DNA from: Thiomonas sp.
GTDB lineage: Bacteria > Pseudomonadota > Gammaproteobacteria > Burkholderiales > Burkholderiaceae_C
Length of the DNA stretch: 64,000 nucleotides
Assembly (NCBI GenBank): GCA_027311065.1
Contig: DAICZP010000007.1
Span: forward strand, 1-64,000
Reading direction: 5' to 3'
The notes under the pieces were generated by a model that saw nothing but the letters and a program-made list of their open reading frames with translations, had not been told where the DNA came from and ran no database searches. Position 1 is the first letter of the stretch. Each line of letters begins with the position of its first letter. Position numbers and translations under genes: made by a program. Positions 32,824 through 55,029 of this stretch are shown piece after piece.

Positions 32824-34539
32824 TCAGAAGCGCACGAAACCGTCGCTGTCCTGCGGGTGTGGCTTGGCTGGCTGGTGCAACTGCCTCGGGTTTGGCTGGG
32901 GTTTCAGCGTTCCGGCGCCCGAAACTCCCCGCGTTCCTGTCGGTGCTTCGGGAGCGGATCGGGTCTTGAACTGTGAGACCAGCTCGAGCAGGCGCGCGGC
33001 CTGCTCGCTCAAGGTCTGCGCTGTCGCCGCAAGTTGTTCGGACGATGCCGCGTTTTGTTGCGTGACCCCACTGAGCTGGCTGATCGCCTGATTGATTTGA
33101 ACCATTCCCGTGGCCTGCTCCTCGCTCGCCGCAGTAATCTCCTGCACGAGCTCCGAGGTCCGGGCAATCGAAGGCACGAGCTGCCGAAGCAGGTCGCCAG
33201 CACCCGCCGCCTGCTTGACGGAGCCCGCAGCAAGTTCCCCGATCTCCTTGGCGGCGACCTGAGCGCGTTCAGCCAATTTCCTGACTTCGGCGGCAACGAC
33301 AGCGAACCCCTTGCCATGCTGCCCGGCCCGCGCGGCCTCGATCGCCGCGTTCAACGCCAGCATATTGGTCTGGTAAGCGATGTCGTCGATGATGGAGATC
33401 CGGTCGGCAATCGACTGCATGTCGGTGAGGGTACGCTGGACTGCACTGCCGCCGGTTTCAGCCTGCTTGGCTGATGTCTGCGCGATCGTATCCGTGTGAC
33501 GGGCGTTCTGCGCGTTCTGCTGAATCGATGCGCTGGCCTGTTCAATCGTCGCCGAAGTCTCCTCGACCGACGATGCCTGCTCCGATGTCGCTTGCGACAG
33601 CGTCGCCGACGTCGACGACACCTGTCCAGCGGCATTGGCCAGGCCGTCGGCCGCAGCACGGACCTGCATGATGGCCTGCGCGAATCGATCGATCATCGAT
33701 TGCGCTGAGCCCAGAATGCGACTGATTTCGTCATCTCCGTCCTGATTCAGCCGCACCGTCAAGTCGCCGGCCTCGATGCGTGCGAATGCGCCCAGACTGG
33801 TGCTGAGCAAGCGGCTGGTACGCCGGATCATCAACACTGACAGGCCCAGCAGCAGCATGGCAATGGCCGCAGCAAAAATAATGCCATCGACGCTATTGCG
33901 CCAGGCAGCAGCATCGATGTCATCGGTGTACGCACCGGTGACGAGTTCCCAGTGCCAAGGGGCGAAATCGGCGACATAGGCAACTTTTGGATAAAAGGCT
34001 GCGGTTGTTCCGCCACCCGTCTTGGGCTTCGGGAAGCGATACGAGACGAAACCACCCGTGCCATCTCTCCCCAGGCGCGCGCACGCGGTGAACAGGTTCA
34101 TTTTGCCGTCGGTGCGAACCTCGGCCGCCCCATCTTCCTGGTAGGCAGTCGCCGTATCGAACTTTGCAATGTCGAGTCGCTTCCCATCCAGCGCGGGAAA
34201 ATAGGGATGCATCAACATCGTCGGCACTGGGTAAGCGTCGGTATTGACAGTGAAATAACCGGATTTTCCATACCGGATCGCCTTGATCCCCGCCAATGCC
34301 TCGGCCTGTGCCGACTGCAGCGATGTCGCCCCCTGATCGACCCGGTCCACGGCGCGATGCAGCACGGCCATCGCCGTCTCCGTGGCGTTGCGCAACATGG
34401 TCTTGCGCTCGCTGAGAATCGAAGCCCGGGCGAGCCGGAAATTGAGATACGTCGCGATTGCCATGCCTGCCACAAACAGAACGGTCAAGGCGATCAGGCC
34501 ACGGCGAATGTCAAGATGAAATCGGCGAGGTGTTGTCAT
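32824..34539 (-). CDS. Methyl-accepting chemotaxis protein with single Cache sensor
   Basis: A 571-residue membrane chemoreceptor. TM1 ~13-33; periplasmic sCache_2 domain ~40-215 ([16 protein letters not shown] and [15 protein letters not shown] are typical); TM2 ~219-239; HAMP ~240-290; methylation helices; signalling tip ~385-425 ([20 protein letters not shown]). sCache_2 receptors usually bind small carboxylates. The C-terminus is a Pro-rich linker ending DGFVRF, not the NWETF-type CheR tether. It is monocistronic and 8 kb from the soluble chemosensory operon, so it probably signals through another CheA. The start at 34539 avoids a 37-residue Arg-rich extension. Confidence 0.92.
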
Positions 34540-34979
34540 GGATTCCGCTTTTTTGATGGTGAATTGCCGTCGTCGCCGGTAAACGACCGGGCCTTGCGCG
34601 CCTGATCTGGAGCCGGGACTCGGTCGACGTGCCCGGTAGCGTTTCTGCATGCTACGACGCGCCGAAATTCATGGAAAAAAATTGCATTGCGTCACATTGT
34701 CGATGCAAGCCCTCGCCTGCGCGCTGCGCGCCTGGAGCCAACGAATGCTTGTGGGAACGCTGCGCCGCGCGTCAACGCTAGAATTTTGCACAGGGATCAG
34801 TCGCTCCCGTTTCGTTTGATGCGACGGCCTGCGCCAATTGTCTTCGAATGACCATGAATGCACCGAGCGGGATGCGCCCTCGTCGCCATTGTGTCTGCGC
34901 CTTGTACCGTCGACGCGCGTCGCGCGCGGTGGGGGGAAGCGCAGGCCACCCGGCAGGGTCATGCTGGTGCGCGTGATGC
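34540..34979. other. Gene-free divergent region between chemoreceptor and sigZ
   Basis: About 440 bp holding the leftward chemoreceptor promoter and the rightward sigma-factor promoter. I see a spaced inverted repeat TTGCAT (34682-34687) / ATGCAA (34703-34708) in an AT-rich stretch, and no convincing coding frame. Confidence 0.5.
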
Positions 34980-42900: not shown

Positions 42901-44814
42901 ATGGCACTGGTGAAGAAAGCGGCACCCTCGAGTCTTCCTGCAACTGCCGGGAAGGCGATCGCCCCGACCACGCGCGACGTCGAAGCGCAGCGCAAGCGGG
43001 CCCGGACGTTGGCGAAGCAGCAGCAAGCCGCGGAGCGGATCGCTGCTGCCACCGGCCAACTGTCGGCTGGTATCAGCGAGTCGGCCTCTGCCGCCGAGGA
43101 GCTGAAGCGGGCGGCCGAACAGATCGCGGCGGGGTCGGAACAGGCAGCCAATGCCGCCCAGGAAGCGGCGACAAGCATCAAGGACATGGTTGTCGGCGTC
43201 GACAAGGTTGATCACAACGCGAACATCACCTTGCAAAAAGGCGGAACGCTGATCGCCGCAGCACAACGCGTGACCGAAGAGGTCTCGCAAATGGTGAACA
43301 ACGTGATTCAAGCGGCACGGCGCCAGGTCGATTCAGTCAAGATGGTGACCGGTCTGGAAAAACAGGCCTCCGATATCGGTGACATCGTCAAGGCGGTTGC
43401 GCGCATTGCCGATCAGACGAACCTCCTCGCGCTCAATGCCGCGATCGAAGCGGCCAGGGCCGGCAAGCACGGGAAAGGCTTTGCCGTGGTCGCCGATGAA
43501 GTCCGCTCACTCGCGGAGACCTCGGAGAAGAGTGCCAAGCAGATTTCCGACCTGATCACGAAAATCCAGACCGACGTCAAGTCCGTCGCAAGCGGTGTCA
43601 ACGAATCCACGCGTACGGTACAAGCTGAAGCCGACAAGGGCGAAGCGGTGAACGAATCCTTGGCGCGCATCGGATCGGCGTCCACCGAAGTGGTCGAAGC
43701 ATCGAAGATCGTGGTCGGTGTGGCGCGTGAAGCCACGCAGGCGACCCAGAGAATGACCAAGGTGTCCGAGACCATCGCGGCCGCGGCCGCCGAGCAGGCT
43801 GCCGCCGCCGAAGAGTCGAACAAGACCATCGCCGAGCAGGCGGTGGCGCTGAACGCTTGCGAGCAGATTGCGCGGGAACTAAGTGAAACAGCCGAGGACT
43901 TGAAGAACTCGACGGACGTGTCGAAAAGCGCAGAAGAAGTTGCGGCCTCGGCGGAGGAACTCTCAACCGCGGTCAAGGAAATCACGCGCGCATCGACGCA
44001 GATCTTGTCAGCAATCAACGAGATCCGACGTGGAGCGAAGGATCAGACCGAAGCCAGTAATGTGGCCATCGCGACCATCAAACAGGTGGAAATCAACGTC
44101 CTGGATTCAAAGAAGGGCGGCAACCTCGGGCTTGAAAAAGCTGAATTCGGCAAGCGCGTGATCGGCGAGATCAAGTCCACGATCGAAGCCATGCTGGCTG
44201 GCACCTTGAAGGCGATCGAGATCACACAGACTTGTGCACGCCAGGTGGGTGACTTGCAGAACGTCGCACGCGACGTTGACAAGATTGTCGAGGCGATCGC
44301 CATGGTGTCGGTGCAAACCAACATGCTGGCTGTGAATGGTGCGATCGAAGCCGCGCGCGCTGGAGAGTTCGGCAAGGGCTTCATCGTCGTGTCGACCGAT
44401 ATCCGGAATCTTTCGCACGACTCGGCACAAAACGCAGACCGTATTCGAGACATGGTGAAGTCGATCCAGGATCAGATCCTGATGGTGGGTTCGGACCTGC
44501 GCGAAATCATCTCCGGTGCGACCGCCGAGACCGAAAAAGCCAAGGGCATTCTCAAGCACATCGAAACATCCGAGGTCGAAGTCGAAGGGGTGCGCGCCGC
44601 CGCCGCAGAAATCGTGACCGGCGCGGATATCGTGACCGAAGCGATTCTCAAGGTCAAAAACGGTGTCGAGCAAATCGCGAACGCGACCCTTGAGGCCGAG
44701 GCAGCCGCAAGCCAGGCCTCGACGGCGGCCGAACAGCAGTCGCGTGGCGCTGAAGAACTGTCTACCGCCATCGAGGAGATCGCGGCGCTGGCAGACGAAC
44801 TCCAAAGCGCTTGA
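42901..44814 (+). CDS. Soluble chemoreceptor with two tandem signalling tips
   Basis: A 637-residue cytoplasmic methyl-accepting protein without transmembrane or ligand-binding domain. It has two full hairpin tips: [18 protein letters not shown] at 171-188 and [18 protein letters not shown] at 471-488, exactly 300 residues apart, each flanked by long Ala/Glu-rich coiled coil. Tip 1 is canonical ([14 protein letters not shown]). Tip 2 is drifted ([14 protein letters not shown]), so only the first may bind CheA/CheW normally. The N-terminal ~45 residues are basic and disordered ([23 protein letters not shown]), a possible ParA contact. AAGGAG lies 7 nt before the ATG. First gene of the operon; the sensory input may come through partner proteins. 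Confidence 0.9.
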
Positions 44815-44828
44815 CCCGGGAGATCGCG

Positions 44829-46373
44829 ATGAGCACAGAAATCGAGGAAACACGTCGCGCCGGCGACAGCGTGGCGACTGACAGCCGGGTCGAGACCCAG
44901 CAGTTCGTCACGTTCATCGTCGGCGACGAAGTCTTCGGTGTCAGCATGGCCCCGGTGCAGGAAATCATCCGCATGCCCGACATCGTTCGCGTACCGCTGG
45001 CACCGCGTTCGCTGAATGGCCTGGCAAATCTTCGCGGACGCGTCCTGCCGATCATTTCGCTGCGGCGCATTTTCAACATCGCTGATGAGCCGAACAACGA
45101 GTCGACGCGAGCACTGGTCATCGATATCGGGCAGCCTCTGGGGTTCGTGGTCGACCGCATCGCCAGTGTCATCAGTGTCGAGCCTGGCAAGATCGAGAGC
45201 GTGGCGGGGGTGCGGGCGGCGATTGACAGCAAATTGCTGAGCGGAGTTTTGAAAGACGTCGGTGGCTTCTCGATGGTGATGGTGCTGGATTTCGAGCGAC
45301 TCATCGCCATCGAGTTCGCTGAAATCGCCTCCCTGGTGCGCGGCGGCCAGCACATCGCGGATACGCGAGCAGACACTGTCAGCGAGGACGCCGAAGATTC
45401 AGGCGAGTTGCAGTTGGTCAGCTTCTCGGTGGAGAGCCAGGAGTACGCGATCGACATCGCCAGCGTTCAGGAAATCGTTCAGATTCCCGCGACGATTGCG
45501 CATGTCCCCAATGCGCCCGAGCAGGTTCTCGGGCTCATGACGTTGCGCGAACGCCTGCTTCCGCTGGTCTCGCTGCGCAGTCTTTTCCATTTGCCGGCAC
45601 GCGCCCTCGATGAGCGCAGCCGGGTCGTGGTGATTACCCTGGGGGCAGCCGCAGTCGGCTTGGTGACGGATAGCGTGTCCGAGGTCTTGCGGGTACCCAA
45701 GGAGTCGGTCGATGCCATGCCCCCGATGTTGGCACGTGACAAGGACATGGCCGACATCACCCAGATCTGCCGGCTGGATGGGGGAAAGCGCCTGGTCTCC
45801 ATCATTGCGCCGGACAGCCTGGCCAGCCGCGCGGCCGTCTCTGATGTTCTCCATGAGGTGTCCACCATGAATGAAGCGCAAGTTGACGCAGTCGATGACA
45901 GCGATGTCAACGACGAAGAGGAACAGGTTGTCGTGTTTCGCCTCGCCGATGGAGAGTTCGGCGTGCCGATCAGCAGTGTGCAGGAGATCGTGCGGATTCC
46001 AGACCAGCTATCCCGTGTTCCGAAAACGCCAGACTTCGTCGAGGGCGTCATCAACCTGCGTGGATCTGTGCTACCGGTGATTGATCAGCGCAAGCGCCTT
46101 GGCCTGCCCGACATCGCGCGCAATGACCGACAGCGCATCATGGTCTTCCTGCTCGACGGCGTCCGTACCGGCTTCATCGTCGATGCTGTGACCGAGGTGC
46201 TCAAGCTCCACCAGCGTCAGATCGAGCCGGCGCCGCGTCTGTCAGGTGAGCAAGCGCGATTGTTGGGAAGAGTCGCCAACCTCGAAAAAGCCAAGCGCAT
46301 GATTCAACTGATTGATCCGGACCACCTCATCGACGAGAAAGACCGCTCCGATCTGGCCAAGCTGGAAGGCTGA
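44829..46373 (+). CDS. Triple CheW-domain coupling protein
   Basis: A 514-residue protein of three CheW domains in series (~25-165, ~197-340, ~370-505), joined by acidic linkers. Each has the CheW core pattern: VxVFxxxxxxFGVPISSVQEIVRIP, then INLRGSVLPVIDQR or equivalents (ANLRGRVLPIISLR, MTLRERLLPLVSLR). Single CheW domains join receptors to CheA; a three-fold fusion could crosslink receptor hairpins in an array, perhaps matching the two tips of the upstream receptor. GGGAG lies 6 nt before the ATG at 44829, 14 nt after the receptor stop. Confidence 0.92.
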   Translation: MSTEIEETRRAGDSVATDSRVETQQFVTFIVGDEVFGVSMAPVQEIIRMPDIVRVPLAPRSLNGLANLRGRVLPIISLRRIFNIADEPNNESTRALVIDIGQPLGFVVDRIASVISVEPGKIESVAGVRAAIDSKLLSGVLKDVGGFSMVMVLDFERLIAIEFAEIASLVRGGQHIADTRADTVSEDAEDSGELQLVSFSVESQEYAIDIASVQEIVQIPATIAHVPNAPEQVLGLMTLRERLLPLVSLRSLFHLPARALDERSRVVVITLGAAAVGLVTDSVSEVLRVPKESVDAMPPMLARDKDMADITQICRLDGGKRLVSIIAPDSLASRAAVSDVLHEVSTMNEAQVDAVDDSDVNDEEEQVVVFRLADGEFGVPISSVQEIVRIPDQLSRVPKTPDFVEGVINLRGSVLPVIDQRKRLGLPDIARNDRQRIMVFLLDGVRTGFIVDAVTEVLKLHQRQIEPAPRLSGEQARLLGRVANLEKAKRMIQLIDPDHLIDEKDRSDLAKLEG

Positions 46374-46386
46374 GGCCGTCTCCGTC

Positions 46387-47442
46387 ATGCGCAACAAGCT
46401 CCTCATCGTCGACGATTCGGCACTCATGCGGGGGCACCTGACGCGCACCTTCACCGCCGAGGGGGATTTTCAGATCCGGCTTGCCCGGAATGGCCAGGAA
46501 GCTGTGGAGGAGAACCTGGAATTCGAGCCTGATGTCGTGACCCTGGACATCAACATGCCGGTGCTTGACGGGCTCGGTGCGCTGGCGCAGATCATGGCCA
46601 CACGGCCGGTGCCCGTCGTCATGGTCTCGTCACTGACCGAGCGTGGCGCACTGACGACGTTTGAAGCGCTGGCGCTCGGGGCCGTGGATTATGTCGCCAA
46701 GCCAGACGGCACCATTTCCCTCTCGATCGAGGCCATCAGCGCGGAACTGGTCCGCAAGGTTCGCGCCGCCTTGCGCGCAAAGCCACATGCCCGGGCCCGG
46801 GCGTTGCCGCGGGCTCGCGAGGAGCGCATCCGGCCCGCGGTGCCGCCGCGGCGGCGTGCGAGCCCGGAGCTGGTGCTGGTGGGCGTATCAACCGGCGGAC
46901 CTTCGACCCTTGAAGAGATCTTGCTCGGGTTACCGGTCGATTTTCGACTGCCAATCATCGTCGCCCAGCACATGCCAGGATCTTTTACCGGTCCATTCGC
47001 GCAGCGCCTGAACGGCCTGTGCGAACTGCAGGTCCTGGAAGTCACACGGCCATCCCCGCTCGAGGGAGGTACGGTCTACATTGGCAAGGGCGGCGCCGAT
47101 GTGATTGTCGCGGAACGCAACGGCAGGCACGTTGTACTGCCCAAGCCCGAATCCAAGCAGCACCTCTGGCATCCCTCGGTCGAATTGCTTGGATTGTCGG
47201 CACTCGAGCACTGCGATGCAACCGGCCTGATTGCGGTCATGCTGACCGGCATGGGGCATGACGGCGCGGATGCATTCACCGAAATTGCCCGCCGTGGCGG
47301 CCGCACGATCGCCGAATCGGAGGAATCCGCCGTGGTGTTCGGCATGCCCAAGGAATTGATTGCCCGAGGTGGCGCGCAGGTCGTTCTGCCGAGTCACCGC
47401 ATCGCCGGACAGTTGATCGACTGGGTTGGCGAGGCAGCATAA
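46387..47442 (+). CDS. cheB: Chemotaxis response regulator / protein-glutamate methylesterase
   Basis: A 351-residue CheB. The receiver domain spans ~1-125 with phospho-acceptor D54 (TLDINMP) and acidic pocket D9/D10; an Arg/Ala-rich linker covers ~130-160. The methylesterase domain has catalytic S168 (GVSTGGPS), H195 (VAQHMPGS) and D292 (TGMGHDGA), all present. It demethylates or deamidates receptor glutamates when phosphorylated by CheA. The double-tip receptor and the receptor-CheZ hybrid in the same operon are the obvious substrates. Confidence 0.95.
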   Translation: MRNKLLIVDDSALMRGHLTRTFTAEGDFQIRLARNGQEAVEENLEFEPDVVTLDINMPVLDGLGALAQIMATRPVPVVMVSSLTERGALTTFEALALGAVDYVAKPDGTISLSIEAISAELVRKVRAALRAKPHARARALPRAREERIRPAVPPRRRASPELVLVGVSTGGPSTLEEILLGLPVDFRLPIIVAQHMPGSFTGPFAQRLNGLCELQVLEVTRPSPLEGGTVYIGKGGADVIVAERNGRHVVLPKPESKQHLWHPSVELLGLSALEHCDATGLIAVMLTGMGHDGADAFTEIARRGGRTIAESEESAVVFGMPKELIARGGAQVVLPSHRIAGQLIDWVGEAA

Positions 47443-47451
47443 GGAAAGGCC

Positions 47452-48075
47452 ATGGGACTGACAAAAAAACCCGCGCACGCGGCCCGGCACGACGGCGCCC
47501 GCACCTACGCACGCGAATTGCCCGGCTTGCTCGCCGCGCTTGCCGATCCAAGCGCCACCGTCCGGCGCTGGGCCGCGCGTGACCTCGCGACACATGCTGA
47601 CGCAGCGCCCGACCTGCTGCGTCAACTCGCCACTGAACCCGACCGCAGCGTGCGCGAAGCGCTGCTGACCAGTCTGGTCCTGATCGGAAACCCGGTCGCG
47701 GTACAGGGATTGATTGCCTGCCTGCGCAGTGAAGATGCGAATTTGCGCAATGAATCGGTTGAAGCGTTGAAAAGCATGCCGGCGGCGCTGGCCGAATTCA
47801 TGCCGGCGATGCTGGCAGATGCTGATCAGGATATGCGGATCTTTGCCGTCAACATCCTGGAATCGTTACGGCATCCCGACGTCGAGCAGTGGTTGATCAA
47901 CGTCATCAGCAGGGATCCCGGCGTCAATGCCTGCGCGACCGCCGTTGACCTGCTCAGCGAAGTCGGGACGATGGCGTCGGCGCAGGCATTGGAAAATCTG
48001 AAGTCGCGGTTTCCGGATGAACCCTATATCGCGTTCGCGGCCGATCTGGCCCTCAAGAGAATCCGAGAGGACTGA
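47452..48075 (+). CDS. HEAT-repeat protein of the chemosensory operon
   Basis: A 207-residue all-helical protein with about four to five HEAT/armadillo-like repeats between ~30 and 200 (ALADPSATVRRWAARDLATH, EPDRSVREALLTSLVLIGNP, LRSEDANLRNESVEALKS and a degenerate C-terminal pair). The N-terminus is basic (MGLTKKPAHAARHDGAR). It probably provides a binding surface for another Che protein. Placement between cheB and cheR hints at control of receptor methylation or scaffolding. AAGGA lies 6 nt before the ATG; 9 nt after cheB. Confidence 0.82.
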   Translation: MGLTKKPAHAARHDGARTYARELPGLLAALADPSATVRRWAARDLATHADAAPDLLRQLATEPDRSVREALLTSLVLIGNPVAVQGLIACLRSEDANLRNESVEALKSMPAALAEFMPAMLADADQDMRIFAVNILESLRHPDVEQWLINVISRDPGVNACATAVDLLSEVGTMASAQALENLKSRFPDEPYIAFAADLALKRIRED

Positions 48076-48078
48076 GCC

Positions 48079-48921
48079 GTGGGCGATCCGGTCATCACCG
48101 TCGAGGATTTCCGTCAGTTCCAGGAATTTTTCTACCGGAAGACGGGAATCTATTTCGATGAAAGCAAGCGATATTTTGTCGATCGGCGCCTCATCGATCG
48201 CATCAGGGACACCGACACGACGAATTTCCGTCGATACTTCTGGTTTGTCAGGTTCCAGGCTGGTGGCGAGGAACTGCAGAAATTGACCAACGTGATGACG
48301 GTCAACGAGACCTACTTTTTCCGGGAGGAATATCAGTTCAAATGTCTTGTGCGCTCGATGCTTCCGGAAATCGTGAAGCGAAAGGCACTGGGCTCGCCGA
48401 TTCGCATCTGGTGCGTTCCCTCCTCGTCTGGCGAAGAGCCCTACTCGATCGCCCTCTACCTGCTCGAGAGTTGGCCCGACCTCGATCGATGGGACGTCGA
48501 GATCACGGCATCGGACATCGATACCGATGTGCTGGCCTCGGCAGCCAGTGGAAAATTTTCGAAGCGCTCGGTGAGCAATTTGCCGGCGGCGGTTTTGAGC
48601 AAGTATTTCAGCAAATCGGATACTGACGAATATCAGCTGTGCGACGACGTACGTCATGCCGTCGACTTTACGCGTGTCAATATCGTCGATCGCGAGGAGA
48701 CACGACCATATCGCGGCTTTGACATCATTTTTTGTCGAAACCTTCTGATCTACTTCGACGACCTGTCGCGAAGGCAGGCAGCAGAAATGTTCTTTGACGC
48801 ATTGAACCCGGGGGGCTACATCTGCCTTGGGCATTCCGAGTCGATGAGCAGGATCGTGCCGATATTCAAAATCCGCAAGTTCCCTGACACCATCGCCTAC
48901 CAGAAGCCGGAGGAGACATGA
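48079..48921 (+). CDS. cheR: Chemotaxis protein methyltransferase
   Basis: A 280-residue CheR. The helical N-terminal domain (~1-75) ends with TVNETYFFRE, which holds the active-site Arg. The SAM-binding domain has IWCVPSSSGEEPYSIA, ASDIDTDVL and FDIIFCRNLLIYFD. The GTG start at 48079 has GAGAGGA 7 nt upstream. No TPR extension. It methylates receptor glutamates with SAM and opposes CheB. The downstream cheY start overlaps its stop (ATGA). Confidence 0.95.
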   Translation: MGDPVITVEDFRQFQEFFYRKTGIYFDESKRYFVDRRLIDRIRDTDTTNFRRYFWFVRFQAGGEELQKLTNVMTVNETYFFREEYQFKCLVRSMLPEIVKRKALGSPIRIWCVPSSSGEEPYSIALYLLESWPDLDRWDVEITASDIDTDVLASAASGKFSKRSVSNLPAAVLSKYFSKSDTDEYQLCDDVRHAVDFTRVNIVDREETRPYRGFDIIFCRNLLIYFDDLSRRQAAEMFFDALNPGGYICLGHSESMSRIVPIFKIRKFPDTIAYQKPEET

Positions 48922-49301
48922 GCGAAAAACGAATTCTTATCGTCGACGACGCAGCGACCGTCAGACTGTTCAATCGCACATTGCTGGAAGCGCAGGGCTG
49001 GCGCGTGGATGAGGCGGTGAACGGCATGGAGGCACTGGAGAAAGTCCTCGGCGAACAGGCATTCGATTTGTATATCGTCGACGTTAATATGCCAAAGCTG
49101 GATGGGTACGGCTTCCTGCAGCAATTGCGCGAGTTCGACATCGTCCAGGCGCCGGCCGTGATGGTCTCGACCGAGGCGCAGAGCAGCGATCGCGCGCGCG
49201 CTCTCGAGGCCGGCGCCAATTTCTATTTGATCAAGCCGATCAAGCCAGACGCACTGATCGCCTGCTGCCGATGCCTGTTGGGGCTGGAGCCGAAGCCATG
49301 A
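48918..49301 (+). CDS. cheY: Single-domain response regulator (CheY-like), first copy
   Basis: A 127-residue receiver with acidic pocket D10/D11, phospho-acceptor D55 (YIVDVNMPK), switch Ser in MVSTEAQ and Lys in LIKPI. Overlaps cheR and cheA by 4 nt each, so it is translated in step with CheA. Its output may be the flagellar motor, another target or phosphate-sink function with the second CheY at 52222. Confidence 0.92.
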   Translation: MSEKRILIVDDAATVRLFNRTLLEAQGWRVDEAVNGMEALEKVLGEQAFDLYIVDVNMPKLDGYGFLQQLREFDIVQAPAVMVSTEAQSSDRARALEAGANFYLIKPIKPDALIACCRCLLGLEPKP

Positions 49302-51964
49302 ACGCCTTGCTGCAACAGTTCATTCTCGAAGCGCGCGATTTTCTAGACGGCATCGGCGACAAGTTGATCGCCATGGAAGATCGGCCCGACGATACCGATC
49401 TGATGAACGAGCTTTTTCGCATCGTTCATACCCTCAAAGGTAACAGCGGGTTGTTTGAGTTTCCCGCGATGACGCGCGTTCTGCACGCCAGCGAGGACCT
49501 GATGGATGCCGTGCGCGCCCTGCGTGTGGCCTATTCGCGGGATCTTGCCGACGCCTTGCTCGAGGCAATGGACTTCGTGGGCCGCCTGCTCGATGAGATC
49601 GAGCAGACCGGCGCGCTGGACCAGGACCACACCCCGGAGGCAACGGCCCTGGCCGCGACACTGCGCAGCTGGATTGGTGACACGGTACCCGTCGCCGCGC
49701 CCGCACCGCCCATGCCCTCGCAGTCTCGACCTGATGCCACGCCATTGTTCGCACTGGCCGATGTGCCGGATGCGATCCGGCTCGACGCCCATACCCGCGC
49801 CAGGCGCGACGGCACCCCCGTGTTCCAGGTGCTTTACCAGCCGGAAGATGCGTGCTTCTTCAAGGGCGAGGATCCATTTTATCAAGCGCGCCTCATCCCC
49901 GGCATCGTCTGGGGACGCGCGGTTTCACGGCAAACACCCGCAGAGCAACAGGATTTTGATTGCTATCGATGCCTGATCGATTTCCAGGCGCTGGTGATTG
50001 CTGAACCCGCTGCGCTGGAGGAGCATTTTCGCTATGTTCCCGAGCAGGTGGTTGTGCGACGCGTCGACAGCCTGGAATTGGTGATCCCGCAAGGCGAGCG
50101 TCACGACGTTCCGGTCTATGGCGATTTCGTCGAGGAAGCGCTGCGCACCCTCGATCGACATGATCGGGGGGCGATGGTGGCGGCAGCGCAGACCCTGCTC
50201 GAGTGGTCCGCTCCTGACTTGTGGCAGGCTTCGGCCTTGCGTTGGCTGCTGGCGCTGCTGGATGATCCCCATACCCGCGATGATGACCTGCGCAGCCTGC
50301 TGCATGCACTGCGGCTGCAGCAACCACCAACCTGGACCGCGGCCGACGCCACGCCGACAGCGGATGACACGCCCGACGCAGTGGAGCCAGCGCTCGCTCC
50401 TCGCAGCGGTGACGTCGCCGACGGGAACAGCCTCGCCGAGACGATCATGCGCGCCCAGCGTGAGATTCTCGACCTCGCCGACGGTGCACCATGGTTGCGT
50501 GGCCGCCTCAAGAGTTGCGCCGCGACGCTTCGCGCTTGCGGCCACCTGGACGCAGCAGCGTCCGCAGGGCTGGACGCGGCACTGGAGGAATCACTCCGTA
50601 CCAGCACCGCCGGCCCACTACGGACGTGGCTCGATGCGTCCGGTCTGTTGCGTGTCGACGCCAGCCCGGCATCCGCGGCGGCGCTGAAAGCAGCATCGCC
50701 GCGACAGGCCAATGCGGCGCCAACGCCGGCCGCCGCCTCCGAGAGCGAGGCGAAACTCATGGGTCGGCGCAGCGACGACGCGATGAGCAGCAAGATTCTC
50801 AAGGTCGACCAGGTCAAGGTCGACTATCTGATGAATCTGATTGGCGAGATGGTTGTCGCCAAGAATGCGCTTCCATTTCTTGCCAACCGGGCCGAACGCC
50901 AGGGTGGCGGTCGCGATCTTGCGCGCGAGATCAAGGCCCAATACGCAGTCATCAACCGCATCGCGGAAGAAATGCAGGACGCCATCATGCAGGTGCGGAT
51001 GATGCCGGTCTCGGTGGTATTCCAGCGGTTTCCCCGTCTGGTGCGCGACATTGCGCACAAGCTGGGCAAAGACATCCACCTGCAACTCATGGGCGATCAC
51101 ACCGAGGCCGACAAGAACGTCGTCGAGGCACTCGCCGATCCGCTGATTCACCTGGTCCGGAACAGCCTCGACCATGGCATCGAGGACCCCGCCACCCGAC
51201 TTGCCGCAGGCAAGCCGGCAGCTGGCAAACTGACCATTGCGGCGACCCAGGAATCGGATCGCGTGGTCATCGAGGTCAGTGACGACGGACGTGGCATCGA
51301 CCCTCTGGTCATCAAGCGCAAGGCGTACAGCAAAGGACTGATCGACGAAGCGGAGTTGGAAAAACTCAGCGATCAGGACGCCATCAACCTGGTGTTCGCG
51401 GCCGGCTTTTCGACCATGGAGACTGTGAGTGATCTCTCCGGGCGAGGTGTTGGCATGGACGTGGTGCGTAGCGCCATGGAGAAGGTTGGTGGTACGGTTG
51501 AGTTGCGCAGTACACCCGGACAGGGGAGCACGGTGCGCCTCTCGCTGCCATTGTCCATGGCTGTATCCAACGTCATGATCGTCGAATCGGATCGCCAGAT
51601 TTTCGGCATTCCCATGGATGCTGTGGTCGAGACGGTGCGCATCGCGCGAGACCGCATACGGGTCATCAAGTCGCGTCAAACCATCGTGCTGCGTGATCGC
51701 GTCGTGCCACTGTTTGCATTGAACCGTCTGCTCGAACTGGACTCTCCTCCCCTTGCCAACGATGATGGCGAGCTCGCGGCGCTGCTCGTTCGCATCGGTG
51801 GCAGCACGATCGGACTGCTGGTGGACGGCTTTCGTGGCGTCTCTGACGTCATCCTCAAGCCGCTGCCGGGGGATCTCTCCAAACTGGGGGTCTACGCCGG
51901 CTCCGCGCTGCTTGGTGATGGCTCGGTGCTGATGGTCCTGAATGCGAAGGAGCTGTTCAAATGA
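49298..51964 (+). CDS. cheA: Chemotaxis histidine kinase CheA with extra middle region
   Basis: An 888-residue CheA. The HPt domain spans ~1-105 with phosphorylatable H44 (VHTLKGNSG). Residues ~150-490 are unusually long: a region ~170-265 of unknown type (FQVLYQPEDACFFKGEDP) and an Ala-rich helical part with Pro linkers. Dimerisation helices follow at ~498-560. The ATP-binding domain has an N box near 617 (HLVRNSLDHG), a G1 box near 662 (DDGRGID) and a G2 box near 714 (SGRGVGMD). The C-terminal CheW-like regulatory domain covers ~735-888. All catalytic motifs look intact. It overlaps cheY by 4 nt and the STAS-like gene by 4 nt. Confidence 0.94.
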   Translation: MNALLQQFILEARDFLDGIGDKLIAMEDRPDDTDLMNELFRIVHTLKGNSGLFEFPAMTRVLHASEDLMDAVRALRVAYSRDLADALLEAMDFVGRLLDEIEQTGALDQDHTPEATALAATLRSWIGDTVPVAAPAPPMPSQSRPDATPLFALADVPDAIRLDAHTRARRDGTPVFQVLYQPEDACFFKGEDPFYQARLIPGIVWGRAVSRQTPAEQQDFDCYRCLIDFQALVIAEPAALEEHFRYVPEQVVVRRVDSLELVIPQGERHDVPVYGDFVEEALRTLDRHDRGAMVAAAQTLLEWSAPDLWQASALRWLLALLDDPHTRDDDLRSLLHALRLQQPPTWTAADATPTADDTPDAVEPALAPRSGDVADGNSLAETIMRAQREILDLADGAPWLRGRLKSCAATLRACGHLDAAASAGLDAALEESLRTSTAGPLRTWLDASGLLRVDASPASAAALKAASPRQANAAPTPAAASESEAKLMGRRSDDAMSSKILKVDQVKVDYLMNLIGEMVVAKNALPFLANRAERQGGGRDLAREIKAQYAVINRIAEEMQDAIMQVRMMPVSVVFQRFPRLVRDIAHKLGKDIHLQLMGDHTEADKNVVEALADPLIHLVRNSLDHGIEDPATRLAAGKPAAGKLTIAATQESDRVVIEVSDDGRGIDPLVIKRKAYSKGLIDEAELEKLSDQDAINLVFAAGFSTMETVSDLSGRGVGMDVVRSAMEKVGGTVELRSTPGQGSTVRLSLPLSMAVSNVMIVESDRQIFGIPMDAVVETVRIARDRIRVIKSRQTIVLRDRVVPLFALNRLLELDSPPLANDDGELAALLVRIGGSTIGLLVDGFRGVSDVILKPLPGDLSKLGVYAGSALLGDGSVLMVLNAKELFK

Positions 51965-52209
51965 GCATCGAATACAAACGCAATGTCGCGCGATTGCAGG
52001 GCGTGGTGACGGTGGATGAAGCTGAATCCATGCTTGCCTGGATTCAGGGACACAAGACACCCAAGATCGACTTGTCGGAATGTACGCATCTTCATTGCGC
52101 CGAACTGCTGATCATGCTGGCATTCAGGCCTGCCGTCACCGCCTGGCCGGCTGACCAGGCATTCGGAAACTGGGTGAAAACATCGCTGCAATTCACCAAC
52201 CCTGCCTGA
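51961..52209 (+). CDS. Small STAS-like protein of the chemosensory operon
   Basis: An 82-residue protein. The pattern of short strands and helices (VARLQGVVTVDEAESMLAWI, then KIDLSECTHLHCAELLIML) resembles a minimal STAS/anti-sigma-antagonist fold, where a Ser/Thr next to the DLS..xH loop is often phosphorylated. The usual phospho-Ser position here is occupied by His/Cys. AAGGAG lies 8 nt before the ATG, which overlaps the cheA stop. It is rarely found in che operons; the role is unknown. Confidence 0.65.
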   Translation: MSIEYKRNVARLQGVVTVDEAESMLAWIQGHKTPKIDLSECTHLHCAELLIMLAFRPAVTAWPADQAFGNWVKTSLQFTNPA

Positions 52210-52221
52210 GGAGAAGGTTGC

Positions 52222-52590
52222 ATGTCGAAAGTCATCCTCATCGTTGACGACTCCGCCGTGATGCTGATGAGCGTCAAGGAGACCCTGGAAATTGCAAAGT
52301 TCGTCGTCCACACCGCGAAGGACGGCGTTGAGGCGCTGGCCGCGTTGCAAGGCGGACTGCGACCTGATCTCGTGATTACCGATATCAACATGCCCAACAT
52401 GAATGGCCTGGACCTCATCAAGCATGCCCGCACGATTCTGCGTTTCACACCGATTCTGGCCTTGACGACAGAAAGCCAGACCAGCAAGCGCGACGAAGCC
52501 AAGAAGCTGGGCGCCACCGGGTGGCTGGTCAAGCCCATCTCCGGGCCGGACTTGTTGCGTGTGATCAAGCAAGTGCTGCCCGGAGCCTGA
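52222..52590 (+). CDS. cheY: Single-domain response regulator (CheY-like), second copy
   Basis: A 122-residue receiver with D9/D10, phospho-acceptor D54 (ITDINMPNM), switch Thr in ALTTESQ and Lys in LVKPIS, closer to flagellar-type CheY than the first copy. A GAGGAGAAGG stretch precedes the ATG. It is one base upstream of the receptor-CheZ hybrid gene, which may be its phosphatase. Confidence 0.93.
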
Positions 52591-52591
52591 C

Positions 52592-53677
52592 ATGGCAAAC
52601 TGGACCGCCGACAACGGCAGCGACAGCGAACGCGCAGGCGACGCGCATGCCAGTCTTGTGGCAATGCCGGCTTCGCGCGCACTGTCCGACGACGAACGCG
52701 CACAATTGATCGGCGATCTCGACCGCATTCCAAAGCTGGTCGAAATTCTGAAGCTGCACCTGACGGACGCCAATTCCAGCACCGAAGCAGGCTCTCTGGA
52801 AATCATCGGGGCACTCCGCAAAATCCGTCAGGGTAGCCAGGAGCTCCTGGACAGCCTGCAGGATCAGCGCGGTCAGGCGGAGGCGATCTCGATCGCGCAG
52901 GCAAACCGTCTGGTCCACAATGAAAGCGTCATCAACAAGCTGATTGCCTATGCCGCGGAACGCATGGCCATCACCTATGACGAATCCGAGCGGATCAAGA
53001 CGACGGTCAACCACGTCAAAGGCCTCAGCGGCCTGACCAGTCTGATTCTGAATATCGCCAAGCAAACAAACATGCTTGCACTCAATGCCGCAATCGAAGC
53101 CGCGCGCGCTGGCAGTGCGGGGCGTGGGTTTGCGGTCGTCGCCGACGAGGTGCGCAAGCTCGCCAAGGCGACTGAAGAAGTCACGACGGAAATTGACCGG
53201 AAAATCACGGCGATCGCTGAACACGTTTCCGTCAATCTTGCCGGGATGGCGCAAGGGGCCCGCGCCGAGGCGGAAGGGACGATGCTGCGCGAGATCGCGC
53301 AGGACTTCGAATCCATGAGCGCCGCATTCAACGCCCTGAGCAGTTATCTCAACGATACCACGGCGCGCTCCAGGCAGATGGGTGAAGGCGTGCATGCGGA
53401 CATCCTCACGGCGCTTTCGAACATGCAATACCAGGACGTGTCACGTCAGCAGATCGAACAGGTGATTCGCGGGCTGGATGGATTGACCACCTATTTCGGT
53501 GCCGTCAAATCCACGCTCGATGGTCGCAGCCAGGGAGAGCGTTTGCCGCAGTTGCAAGATCGTATCGATGGCCTCCGTGACGGCTATGTGATGCAAAGCC
53601 AGCATTCCGCGCACGATTTAGCGATGGGGGCTGACGTCAAGGATGACGAAAACCTGCCGGACATCGAGCTGTTCTGA
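52592..53677 (+). CDS. Soluble receptor-tip / CheZ-like hybrid protein
   Basis: A 361-residue cytoplasmic protein. Residues ~40-215 form a short receptor hairpin with a canonical tip ([19 protein letters not shown], 156-174; [13 protein letters not shown]). The C-terminal half contains [14 protein letters not shown], where D282 and Q286 reproduce the DxxxQ catalytic pair of CheZ (DLTGQ in E. coli). The last residues ([10 protein letters not shown]) resemble the acidic-hydrophobic C-terminal peptide by which CheZ binds CheY. It could thus be a CheY phosphatase that docks into the array through its own receptor tip. GGAG lies 6 nt before the ATG. Confidence 0.78.
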
Positions 53678-53685
53678 GTTTTCCA

Positions 53686-54453
53686 ATGCACGTGATCGCC
53701 GTCTCAAACCGAAAGGGTGGAACTGGCAAGACCACCGTTTGCGTGAATCTTGCGAGCGAACTGGCGGCGCGCGGCCATCGCGTATTGCTGATCGATCTGG
53801 ATTCTCAGGGCCATTGCGCCGTCGGCCTCGGCATAGCGGCGTCCGCGGAATGGTCGACCATTCACCACGTCCTCGCAACTGGCGGCAATCTCGATGACGC
53901 GATCAGGCCGACGCCGCAGCAGAACCTCTGGTTGGCGGCCGCGGATCCTCAATTTGAGCACGGACGACTCGGCGGCGATGCGCAGGCCCTGCGGCGCGCC
54001 ATGCTTTCCGCCATGCTCGGCAATCGCTTCGATTTTGTTTTCATCGATACTCCGCCGTCGCTCGACTCACTGTTGATCAACGGACTGACTGCAGCCGACC
54101 GTCTTCTTATTCCATTTGTACCTCACCCATTATCATTCCACGGGATACGACAACTGGCGAAATTGTTGTTCTCGGTGATCTCCCGCGACAACGCATCGCT
54201 GAAGATTCTAGGTTTTCTGCCTGTCATGGCGGCCGAGCATGTACGGCAGCATCGTGCGATGTCGGTGCAGGTTGCCCGTGAGTTCGGCGCGGCCCGCATG
54301 CTCCCGCCCATTCGTATGGACATTCGCCTGGCTGAGGCGTTTGGCGCCGGCGTCCCGATTCGCGCGTACGCGCCGGCATGCCGTAGCAATGAAGATTTTC
54401 AATCGTTGGCTGGAGATGTTGTGGGCCGGTTGGAATGCCCTGCTGTAACATAG
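53686..54453 (+). CDS. ParA-family ATPase of the chemosensory operon
   Basis: A 255-residue ParA/MinD-type ATPase. The deviant Walker A is NRKGGTGKTT near residue 9, switch I LIDLDSQGH, and Walker B FIDTPPS. There is no HTH extension and no ParB gene. Comparable enzymes (PpfA in Rhodobacter with TlpT; ParC in Vibrio) are encoded beside che genes and position receptor clusters. Here it most likely spaces the soluble array over the nucleoid before division. The start is 8 nt after the hybrid gene, with no clear SD. Confidence 0.88.
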   Translation: MHVIAVSNRKGGTGKTTVCVNLASELAARGHRVLLIDLDSQGHCAVGLGIAASAEWSTIHHVLATGGNLDDAIRPTPQQNLWLAAADPQFEHGRLGGDAQALRRAMLSAMLGNRFDFVFIDTPPSLDSLLINGLTAADRLLIPFVPHPLSFHGIRQLAKLLFSVISRDNASLKILGFLPVMAAEHVRQHRAMSVQVAREFGAARMLPPIRMDIRLAEAFGAGVPIRAYAPACRSNEDFQSLAGDVVGRLECPAVT

Positions 54454-54556
54454 GCCGCGCTGCGTCGCTACCTGTGCAGCGCCCGCCAGCTGCCGCCGTC
54501 ACGGTTTTCAGCCCGTTCGTGGCTCTCGGTGGCAAATCGGGATGACGAGGTATTTG

Positions 54557-54988
54557 ATGCCGTTCACAAACTGGCGCGACACCATGGAAATCGGCGTCGG
54601 CAAGCTGGATGCCGATCACAAGGGATTGCTCGACATCATGAACTTGTTGTATGACGCGATTCAGGACCATCGCGGGCAAGATGTCCTCGGCCCGCTGATC
54701 GATCGATTGGTCGATGCTTACAACGTGCATTTTGCACATGAAGATAAATTGTTCCAGCGTACGCGCTATCCGTTGGCGAGACAGCATCGCGCGGAGCATG
54801 ACTTGCTCCGGGATCGTCTGGGCGCGATTCGCGATCAGCATCGAGTCAAACCCGATGCATCGATTTCCTTGTCGACGCTGGCATTCCTGCGCGACTATCT
54901 GGTCGGGCATATCCAGGGGTTCGATACGCAATTCGCGGAATTTGTGCGCACCGCAGGCAGCACCAAAGAGCGACCAGACCCGCGCTGA
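54557..54988 (+). CDS. Bacteriohemerythrin
   Basis: A 143-residue four-helix diiron O2-binding protein. All seven ligands are visible: H21, H58, E62, H77, H81, H118 and D123 (HKGLLD, HFAHE, HRAEH, HIQGFD). The start at 54557 has GAGG upstream; an ATG five codons earlier (54542) is possible. As a free-standing hemerythrin it may supply or buffer O2, or report O2 to the soluble receptors of the same operon. It is the last gene before a hairpin. Confidence 0.9.
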   Translation: MPFTNWRDTMEIGVGKLDADHKGLLDIMNLLYDAIQDHRGQDVLGPLIDRLVDAYNVHFAHEDKLFQRTRYPLARQHRAEHDLLRDRLGAIRDQHRVKPDASISLSTLAFLRDYLVGHIQGFDTQFAEFVRTAGSTKERPDPR

Positions 54989-55012
54989 CCGCGGCGCAGC
55001 GCCGTAAGACGC

Positions 55013-55029
55013 GGCAGTCTCAGACTGCC
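55013..55029 (+). terminator. Hairpin after the chemosensory operon
   Basis: GGCAGTCT (55013-55020) and AGACTGCC (55022-55029) form a perfect inverted repeat 24 nt after the hemerythrin stop. No T-run follows. Marks the probable end of the operon. Confidence 0.45.

What the first reader, a model, noticed from the sequence alone, without database searches (positions are those of the whole stretch)
42901..55029. Non-canonical cytoplasmic chemosensory operon with its own positioning ATPase and hemerythrin
Twelve tightly packed same-strand genes: double-tip soluble receptor, triple CheW, CheB, HEAT protein, CheR, CheY, CheA, STAS-like protein, CheY, receptor-CheZ hybrid, ParA, hemerythrin. Neither receptor has a transmembrane helix. 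Several parts (two-tip receptor, three-CheW fusion, receptor-phosphatase hybrid, HEAT and STAS proteins) are unusual singly; together they look like a complete, self-contained cytoplasmic array. The output, whether taxis or another process, is unknown.
Basis: partly seen in the sequence, partly recalled or inferred. Interest (0 to 1): 0.85.

Follow-up and report, generated by a model that had tools for sequence, protein, structure and literature searches.

The report
Cytoplasmic chemosensory operon with receptor-phosphatase
This is a complete copy of an already described kind of bacterial sensing array that sits inside the cell (the F9 class), and its second receptor appears to carry a built-in switch-off enzyme, which could be the missing part of several such arrays whose purpose is still unknown.

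Summary
The operon is real: eleven packed genes (42901-54453), plus a hemerythrin 88 bp further on. It is not a new kind of system. Double-tip receptor (DosM) plus triple CheW are the published signatures of the F9 chemosensory class, which forms double-layered cytoplasmic arrays in Vibrio cholerae. The order DosM to CheA recurs in 22 of 22 F9 loci with enough flank; HEAT is regular (22 of 22), ParA occasional (6 of 22), hemerythrin not seen in the cluster (0 of 22).

The new content is the second receptor. Its C-terminal helix carries Q-x-Q-D-x-x-x-Q and it ends in IELF, resembling the active site and CheY-binding tail of the phosphatase CheZ. Profile comparison supports the link (score 41.4, P 8.9e-6; controls at most 23.4). 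18 of 22 F9 loci have the motif, 15 fused to a receptor, 3 in a separate tip-less protein. The genome (92% complete) has no Pfam CheZ. Related hybrids sit beside CheY and CheA elsewhere, one in an F7-like cluster; in other genomes short CheZ-like proteins, or in one a true CheZ, sit beside the same CheY. I saw no report of such a hybrid in the papers searched.

I propose it is the phosphatase missing from F9 and early F7 systems. Activity is untested.

The parts
42901..44814 (+). DosM: soluble receptor with two signalling tips (residues 176 and 476), three methylation-type motifs
   Evidence: Pfam MCPsignal, 2 stretches; tips and motifs; 45-90% identical homologues in the 22 F9 loci
44811..46373 (+). 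CheW3: three concatenated CheW domains (ATG at 44829 also possible)
   Evidence: Pfam CheW, 3 stretches, E 2.2e-97
46378..47442 (+). CheB, receiver + methylesterase (start uncertain)
   Evidence: Pfam
47452..48075 (+). HEAT-repeat protein, regular F9 member
   Evidence: Pfam HEAT_2; 22 of 22 F9 loci
48079..48921 (+). CheR
   Evidence: Pfam
48918..49301 (+). CheY (first; Tyr at the position of E. coli Y106, position recalled)
   Evidence: Pfam; sequence
49271..51964 (+). CheA
   Evidence: Pfam Hpt, H-kinase_dim, HATPase_c, CheW
51961..52206 (+). small STAS-like protein
   Evidence: 13 of 21 aligned members match STAS_2 at E<=0.1, the window copy does not
52222..52590 (+). CheY (second), 1 bp before the receptor-phosphatase
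   Evidence: Pfam; spacing
52592..53677 (+). MCPz: soluble receptor with CheZ-like catalytic motif (Q279-x-Q281-D282-x-x-x-Q286) and CheZ-like C-terminal tail (IELF)
53686..54453 (+). ParA-family ATPase, probable array positioning
   Evidence: Pfam AAA_31 E 4.7e-38; 6 of 22 F9 loci
54542..54988 (+). hemerythrin; association with the operon weak
   Evidence: Pfam Hemerythrin E 3.3e-13; 88-bp gap; not found in the clusters of 22 F9 loci

Best explanation
The operon encodes an F9-class chemosensory array. SHOWN: its gene content and order are those of the F9 class. INFERRED from V. cholerae: DosM spans two CheA/CheW3 base plates and holds a double-layered cytoplasmic array together; other soluble receptors give the input; CheR and CheB tune DosM, which has methylation-type motifs. 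PROPOSED HERE: the second receptor, MCPz, is the CheY-P phosphatase of the array. Its receptor tip docks it into a base plate. A CheZ-type Asp...Gln pair about 115 residues from the tip (about 17 nm as straight helix) lies in its own helical stalk, and the C-terminal tail captures CheY-P. CheY, whose gene is the immediate neighbour, would be phosphorylated at the base plate and dephosphorylated within the same array, keeping the signal short and local. ParA probably distributes the soluble array between daughter cells. The output is most likely a modulation of flagellar behaviour in stationary or low-oxygen conditions, but this last step is weak.
For: F9 class: DosM and CheW3, conserved order, class signatures and cryo-ET in print. 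CheZ-like part: Q279, Q281, D282, Q286, L360, F361 invariant over 16 fused F9 receptors; D and the last Q invariant over 24 rows that include four tip-less proteins, three plasmid copies and the C63 copy. Tip-to-D spacing 111-118, one of 130; last Q to C-terminus 60-98 in hybrids (the F7-like one 77, from the motif seen) against 68-80 in 30 canonical CheZ. Profile comparison with those 30 CheZ: 41.4, P 8.9e-6; second hybrid group of 12 alone 33.7, P 1.7e-4, same register; receptors from tip+40 on 38.5, and 26.2 still in register with the motif masked; four DosM segments and the N-helix at most 17.1, 100 column shuffles at most 22.2; 75 other receptors 19.1, a subset of 28 23.4. Pfam CheZ matches two hybrids weakly, L012 18.9 and L153 19.8 bits. 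Motif and tail go together: 37 of 39 receptors with the motif have the tail, 3 of 76 without. Slot: hybrid-CheY-CheA and short CheZ-like-CheY-CheA alternate; in L127 a protein over the Pfam CheZ cut-off (35.7 against 30.7 bits) lies between such a CheY and CheA. No Pfam CheZ in the window's genome. In L026 the receptor has Arg for the catalytic Gln next to a separate tip-less protein with an intact motif. PMC7184735 says P. aeruginosa McpA has Val at the second place of a C-terminal x-[HFYW]-x-x-[HFYW] tether, as a -VELF-type end would. Flagella: FliM, flagellin ORF on C24 read by eye.
Against: No activity is known for any hybrid. The window protein does not match Pfam CheZ; of 11 hybrid or tip-less proteins scanned only 2 do, both below the cut-off. 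Sub-cut-off CheZ matches are noisy: of seven fetched, four are hybrids or hybrid-like and three (L132, L134, L135) are not. The masked-motif score (26.2) is not far above the best control (23.4). Four tip-less alpha proteins align to CheZ only weakly (24.4, P 0.01), as do five short CheZ-like proteins (26.0, P 0.0027), and two of the latter have no Pfam hit. Structure searches list chemoreceptors, not CheZ; the model of a tip-less protein is too poor to use (mean pLDDT 51.9). 10 of 15 fused F9 hybrids have two transmembrane-like segments, hard to place inside a cytoplasmic sandwich; PMC7534058 suggests VC1394 may join F6 arrays instead. 4 of 22 F9 loci show no hybrid. The C63 copy in this genome has G for the second Q. 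A CheD in an F7-like cluster also ends in IELF, so the tail may bind something other than CheY.
Confidence: 0.66

Rival explanations
1. MCPz is an ordinary structural or sensory receptor of the F9 array; the Q-x-Q-D-x-x-x-Q and ELF tail are a packing motif and a tether for another protein, with no phosphatase activity.
For: Fold and tip are those of a receptor; an F7-like CheD shares the IELF end; Pfam CheZ cut-off not reached.
Against: The catalytic-type D and Q are invariant while most of the stalk is not; the segment aligns in register with CheZ above all controls; it neighbours CheY, and short CheZ-like proteins or a true CheZ sit by the same CheY elsewhere; no methylation-type motif was found in MCPz.
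Confidence: 0.22
2. MCPz is a phosphatase but not part of the F9 array: the receptor-like hairpin has become a scaffold, and in the membrane-anchored relatives it acts at the membrane or in another array.
For: Two transmembrane-like segments in 10 of 15 fused relatives; tip-less separate forms exist (L023, L024, L026, L032); McpA-like receptors are dispensable for F7 arrays and McpA associates with F6 arrays (PMC7184735 and PMC7534058).
Against: The tip is as strictly conserved as the motif in the 16 fused F9 receptors, which a scaffold would not need; the window lineage (window, L009, L010) has no transmembrane-like segment.
Confidence: 0.3
3. The operon controls a non-flagellar process (type IV pili, c-di-GMP, stress physiology) rather than taxis.
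For: F9 CheA deletion in V. cholerae has no detectable phenotype under standard conditions and the arrays were seen in late stationary phase or low oxygen (PMC7534058 passages); the genome has two other chemosensory systems.
Against: 97% of species with F9 have a complete flagellar gene set (PMC9321776 passage); FliM is present here; no output gene of another kind is in the conserved operon.
Confidence: 0.4

Closest known systems
F9 class chemosensory system (V. cholerae cluster I; DosM VC1403, triple CheW VC1402, CheA VC1397)
   Same: Double-tip soluble receptor, triple CheW, CheA, a 24H receptor gene in the cluster (VC1394); cytoplasmic double-layer array expected
   Different: The second receptor is soluble here (VC1394 is reported with a transmembrane region); ParA and hemerythrin are appended
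McpA-like (CttP/PA0180, VCA1088) receptors of stage 1-2 F7 systems
   Same: One McpA-like receptor at the end of an F7-like cluster (L133/L153) has the same motif, spacing (115) and IELF tail; the McpA-like C-terminus is described in print as highly conserved with an unclear role (PMC7184735)
   Different: Transmembrane receptor, F7 rather than F9; the named PA0180 and VCA1088 sequences themselves were not examined
CheZ phosphatase (PF04344)
   Same: Asp-x-x-x-Gln active-site motif preceded by F/Y-Q, long helical hairpin, linker, C-terminal tail ending in Phe, gene next to CheY
   Different: Embedded in a receptor with a signalling tip; below the Pfam cut-off; tail is IELF rather than the DDLLSSLGF type of the 30 CheZ used
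PpfA/TlpT positioning of cytoplasmic clusters in Rhodobacter sphaeroides (recalled, no call)
   Same: ParA ATPase encoded next to soluble receptors
   Different: Different chemosensory class; no partner region tested here

Membership tests
F9 chemosensory class | DosM: receptor with two signalling domains in tandem | tested here: met
   Two MCPsignal stretches, tips at 176 and 476
F9 chemosensory class | CheW with three concatenated CheW domains | tested here: met
   Three CheW stretches
F9 chemosensory class | Full set with CheA, CheB, CheR, CheY in the cluster | tested here: met
   order as in 22 other loci
F9 chemosensory class | Double-layered cytoplasmic array in cells | not testable with these tools
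   Needs cryo-ET
F9 chemosensory class | CheA placed in the F9 clade by phylogeny | not tested
   No class-labelled CheA set was at hand
CheZ (PF04344) | Pfam match over the curated cut-off | tested here: not met
   No match for the window protein; best relatives L012 18.9 and L153 19.8 bits against 30.7
CheZ (PF04344) | Catalytic D-x-x-x-Q preceded by F/Y-Q | tested here: met
   QYQDVSRQ; invariant D and Q; motif definition from PMC7750401 passages
CheZ (PF04344) | C-terminal CheY-binding tail after a linker | tested here: inconclusive
   Conserved ELF/TFF-type tail at a similar distance; binding not testable; a CheD shares the tail
CheZ (PF04344) | CheZ fold among structure matches | tested here: inconclusive
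   Receptors and long coiled coils fill the lists
CheZ (PF04344) | Dephosphorylates CheY-P | not testable with these tools
   -
Chemoreceptor (MCP) | Signalling tip and MCPsignal domain | tested here: met
   E 1e-28; tip invariant at most positions; receptor folds rank first

The most novel reading that the evidence does not exclude
The McpA/VC1394-like receptors that accompany F9 and early F7 chemosensory systems are receptor-embedded CheY phosphatases. They are the 'missing CheZ' of these systems: they dock by their tip into an array, carry the CheZ active site in their own stalk, and explain the conserved C-terminus of McpA-like receptors noted as unexplained in print. If the stalk transmits signals, receptor state could gate phosphatase activity, so that one molecule would control both formation and decay of CheY-P.
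Probability: 0.55. Interest if true: 0.75.

Novelty: new variant of a known kind. Interest (0 to 1): 0.56.

Why it matters
F9 and ancestral F7 arrays are structurally described but have no known function, and F7 stages 1-2 are reported to have cheY while only the F6 cluster has cheZ (PMC7184735). A phosphatase built into the neighbouring receptor would give these systems a complete phosphorylation cycle. It also turns an unexplained conserved C-terminus into a simple biochemical prediction and provides a handle (two residues) for finding the output.

Tried and rejected
PDB sequence search with the hybrid C-terminal profile: 246 sequences at E<=10, of which the 60 shown are coiled-coil noise (viral fusion proteins, designed bundles) without CheZ; discarded. 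Structure comparison is filled by receptors and long coiled coils; CheZ is not in the rows shown, which is not evidence either way. STAS profile against PDB: nothing at E<=1. Promoter and terminator scan: counts below the shuffle means (1 against 3.1; 10 against 11.0), not used. A link between a soluble hybrid and ParA was considered: 3 of 5 soluble fused hybrids have ParA (L009, L010, L017) against 1 of 10 anchored ones (L015), but L024 and L026 (split forms), L149 and L150 have ParA with anchored proteins; too few, not claimed. The idea that F9 is the only motility system here was dropped: a second CheA with its own receptor hybrid lies on C63, and a pili-type cluster (read by eye) is split over C31/C94. 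An invariant Glu (E65 of the 16-row alignment) lies roughly opposite the motif in the hairpin, but indels blur it in the wider set; not used. Hydropathy as a transmembrane test is crude: CheW3, HEAT and a CheA reach 1.75-2.02 with the same measure.

Paper searches that could show a receptor-CheZ fusion: 18 papers; 0; 7; 0; 12; 7; 2. Briegel 2016 is not held, and supplements and most subscription papers were not seen, so precedence in print is not excluded.
Full report
WHAT IS THERE. The window holds an unbroken run of + strand genes: double receptor 42901-44814, CheW3, CheB, HEAT, CheR, CheY, CheA, STAS-like, CheY, second receptor 52592-53677, ParA to 54453, then hemerythrin 54542-54988 after an 88-bp gap. 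The gaps before that lie between -31 and +15 bp.

WHAT IT IS. A receptor with two signalling domains and a CheW with three domains are the two signatures of the F9 chemosensory class (PMC9321776, passages). V. [quoted passage not shown] Full F9 sets were reported in 64 of 2781 species. My sample of 398 genomes of the phylum gave 8 with a triple CheW, the window's included.

CONSERVATION. A triple-CheW search of genome contigs gave 30 loci. Four archaeal loci (L035-L038) match a stretch of only about 110-155 residues and were set aside; L018, L028, L029 and L033 end too early; 22 remain that can be read past CheA. In all 22 the order DosM-CheW3-CheB-HEAT-CheR-CheY-CheA holds, in Chromatiaceae, other beta/gamma lineages, alpha lineages (Azospirillum, Magnetospirillum, Roseomonas) and Planobispora. 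STAS is seen by tblastn in 17 of 22 and as an ORF in one more (L021), ParA in 6 of 22. Hemerythrin was found in none of the 22 clusters; one weak match lies upstream on the other strand in L021. Plasmid records also carry relatives of the triple CheW (24 records); three plasmid regions were fetched, two by CheW3 and one by the hybrid, and all three have the hybrid motif.

TESTS OF THE CHEZ LINK. Thirty CheZ proteins were taken from the class search. Against their profile, the C-terminal segment of 24 hybrids and tip-less forms scores 41.4 (P 8.9e-6, probability 83%); without the C63 copy (23 rows) 41.6; a second group of 12 that includes the C63 copy scores 33.7 (P 1.7e-4), on the same CheZ stretch (about 134-202). 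With only the receptors that have a tip, from tip+40 on, the score is 38.5, and 26.2 (P 0.0027) with the eight motif residues masked, still in register. Controls: four DosM segments and the N-terminal helix 12.0-17.1, 100 column shuffles at most 22.2, 75 other receptors 19.1 and a subset of 28 of these 23.4, in another register. Weak points: four tip-less alpha proteins alone score 24.4 (P 0.01) and five short CheZ-like proteins 26.0 (P 0.0027), although the latter match the hybrids at 42.9 (P 1e-6). Pfam CheZ matches 2 of 11 hybrid or tip-less proteins scanned, both under the cut-off. Among 115 distinct receptor tips in everything fetched by then, 37 of 39 receptors with the motif also have the tail, against 3 of 76 without it (Fisher P 3.6e-24, to be discounted for relatedness and because some loci were fetched with a profile of this region). 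The three exceptions are the C63 copy (QFGDRVSQ), L105 (QFYDVMRQ, so D and Q are intact) and L026, where the receptor has R for the catalytic Gln.

FUSED AND SPLIT FORMS. Of the 22 loci, 15 have the fused hybrid (10 with two transmembrane-like segments; L009, L010, L017, L020 and L031 without), 3 have the intact motif only in a tip-less protein (L023, L024, L026), and 4 show none (L021, L022, L025, L034). L032 has both. Of five further F9 genomes in the phylum sample that could be read, L148, L149 and L150 have it; L151 and L152 do not show it (L152 has an ORF ending in DEIELF without the motif); L146 and L147 end too early. L149 and L150 keep ParA between STAS and CheY.

BEYOND F9. The window's genome has a second system on C63: CheW-receiver (CheV-type) gene, a hybrid with QFGDRVSQ and DITFF end, CheY, CheA, CheW. 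A profile of the hybrid C-terminus rings in 29 of 100 family genomes. Their best loci are F9-type or similar in 7 (the window's, L100-L105), this second group (QFQDRxxQ...FF, tip-to-D 113 where the tip pattern matches) in 13 (L106-L118), short proteins in 8 (L119-L122, L124-L127) and unclear in 1 (L123). The second group stands in the order hybrid-CheY-CheA. In L121, L122, L124, L125 and L126 a protein of 139-189 aa with QFQDMATQ, QFQDMASQ or QFQDLSTQ and a DAGS(I/V)ELF end takes that slot. In L127 the protein between CheY and CheA passes the Pfam CheZ cut-off (35.7 against 30.7 bits): a true CheZ by the same CheY. In G007 a cluster of CheY, CheA (49% identical to the C63 CheA over most of its length), receptor, CheW, CheR, CheB, CheD and hemerythrin ends with a McpA-like receptor carrying QFQDITRQ and NIELF, with a sub-cut-off Pfam CheZ match (19.8 bits). 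I call it F7-like from its gene content; its order is not exactly the published stage 1 order. In a FastTree tree a split with support 0.963 parts the hybrids from five ordinary receptors and the two DosM tips (the F7-like segment was cut short there by a wrong motif match).

WHY THIS FITS AN OPEN POINT. Ortega et al. [quoted passage not shown] P. aeruginosa McpA has Val at the second place of the tether motif, as a -VELF-type end would. The Vibrio review (PMC7534058, section 14) groups VC1394 of F9 with McpA as 24H transmembrane receptors. The window receptor appears to occupy the VC1394 place (V. cholerae gene order partly recalled). I saw no description of a receptor-CheZ hybrid in the searches.

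MECHANISM. F9 CheA would phosphorylate the two CheYs; MCPz, docked by its tip, would remove the phosphate. The D lies 115 residues from the tip, about 17 nm as straight helix, comparable to half of the 35-nm array height, so the active site may sit near the array's mid-plane; the same arithmetic gives 45 nm between the DosM tips, so this ruler is rough. The membrane-anchored relatives do not fit the sandwich easily, which is the main structural doubt. ParA positioning is by analogy only.

VERDICT. The operon is a new member of F9, well conserved and partly understood. The receptor-embedded CheZ is the part worth attention: sequence support is good, function untested.

Noticed in passing
L133:4520-5122 (same as L153:9520-10122): The CheD (Pfam) of an F7-like cluster ends in SNIELF, the same tail as the McpA-like receptor two genes on; either CheD also docks on CheY or the tail binds a different partner.
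   Followed up: partly
L133:5138-5557: A hemerythrin (Pfam 34.2 bits) lies directly before the McpA-like receptor of an F7-like cluster, as a hemerythrin follows the F9 cluster in the window.
   Followed up: partly
L055:1295-2275 (own genome contig C63): Second receptor-CheZ-like hybrid of the same genome, with G for the second Q of the motif (QFGDRVSQ), next to CheV-, CheA- and CheW-type genes and an EAL-like protein (the last by eye).
   Followed up: partly
L026:15113-17037: Tip-less CheZ-like protein beside a receptor that kept the tail but has Arg in place of the catalytic Gln: a natural split of the hybrid.
   Followed up: partly
L031: A full F9 cluster with hybrid in Planobispora takensis, an actinobacterium, far from the other carriers.
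   Followed up: no
window 26285-31351 (-): A 1688-aa protein with MASE1, two GAF, GGDEF, protoglobin and EAL domains (Pfam): a c-di-GMP enzyme with a possible haem oxygen sensor in the middle.
   Followed up: partly
window 32824-34650 (-): Receptor ending in DGFVRF; two other receptors of this genome also end in FVRF, which resembles a CheR-docking pentapeptide (recalled).
   Followed up: no
L066 (Methylosinus pOB3b1): The plasmid F9 triple CheW matches in three pieces in one record (H9) but in one piece in another record of the same strain (H6).
   Followed up: no
own genome contigs C31 and C94: A pili-type CheA appears (by eye) split over two contig ends, so the count of two CheA kinases in this assembly is a lower bound.
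   Followed up: partly
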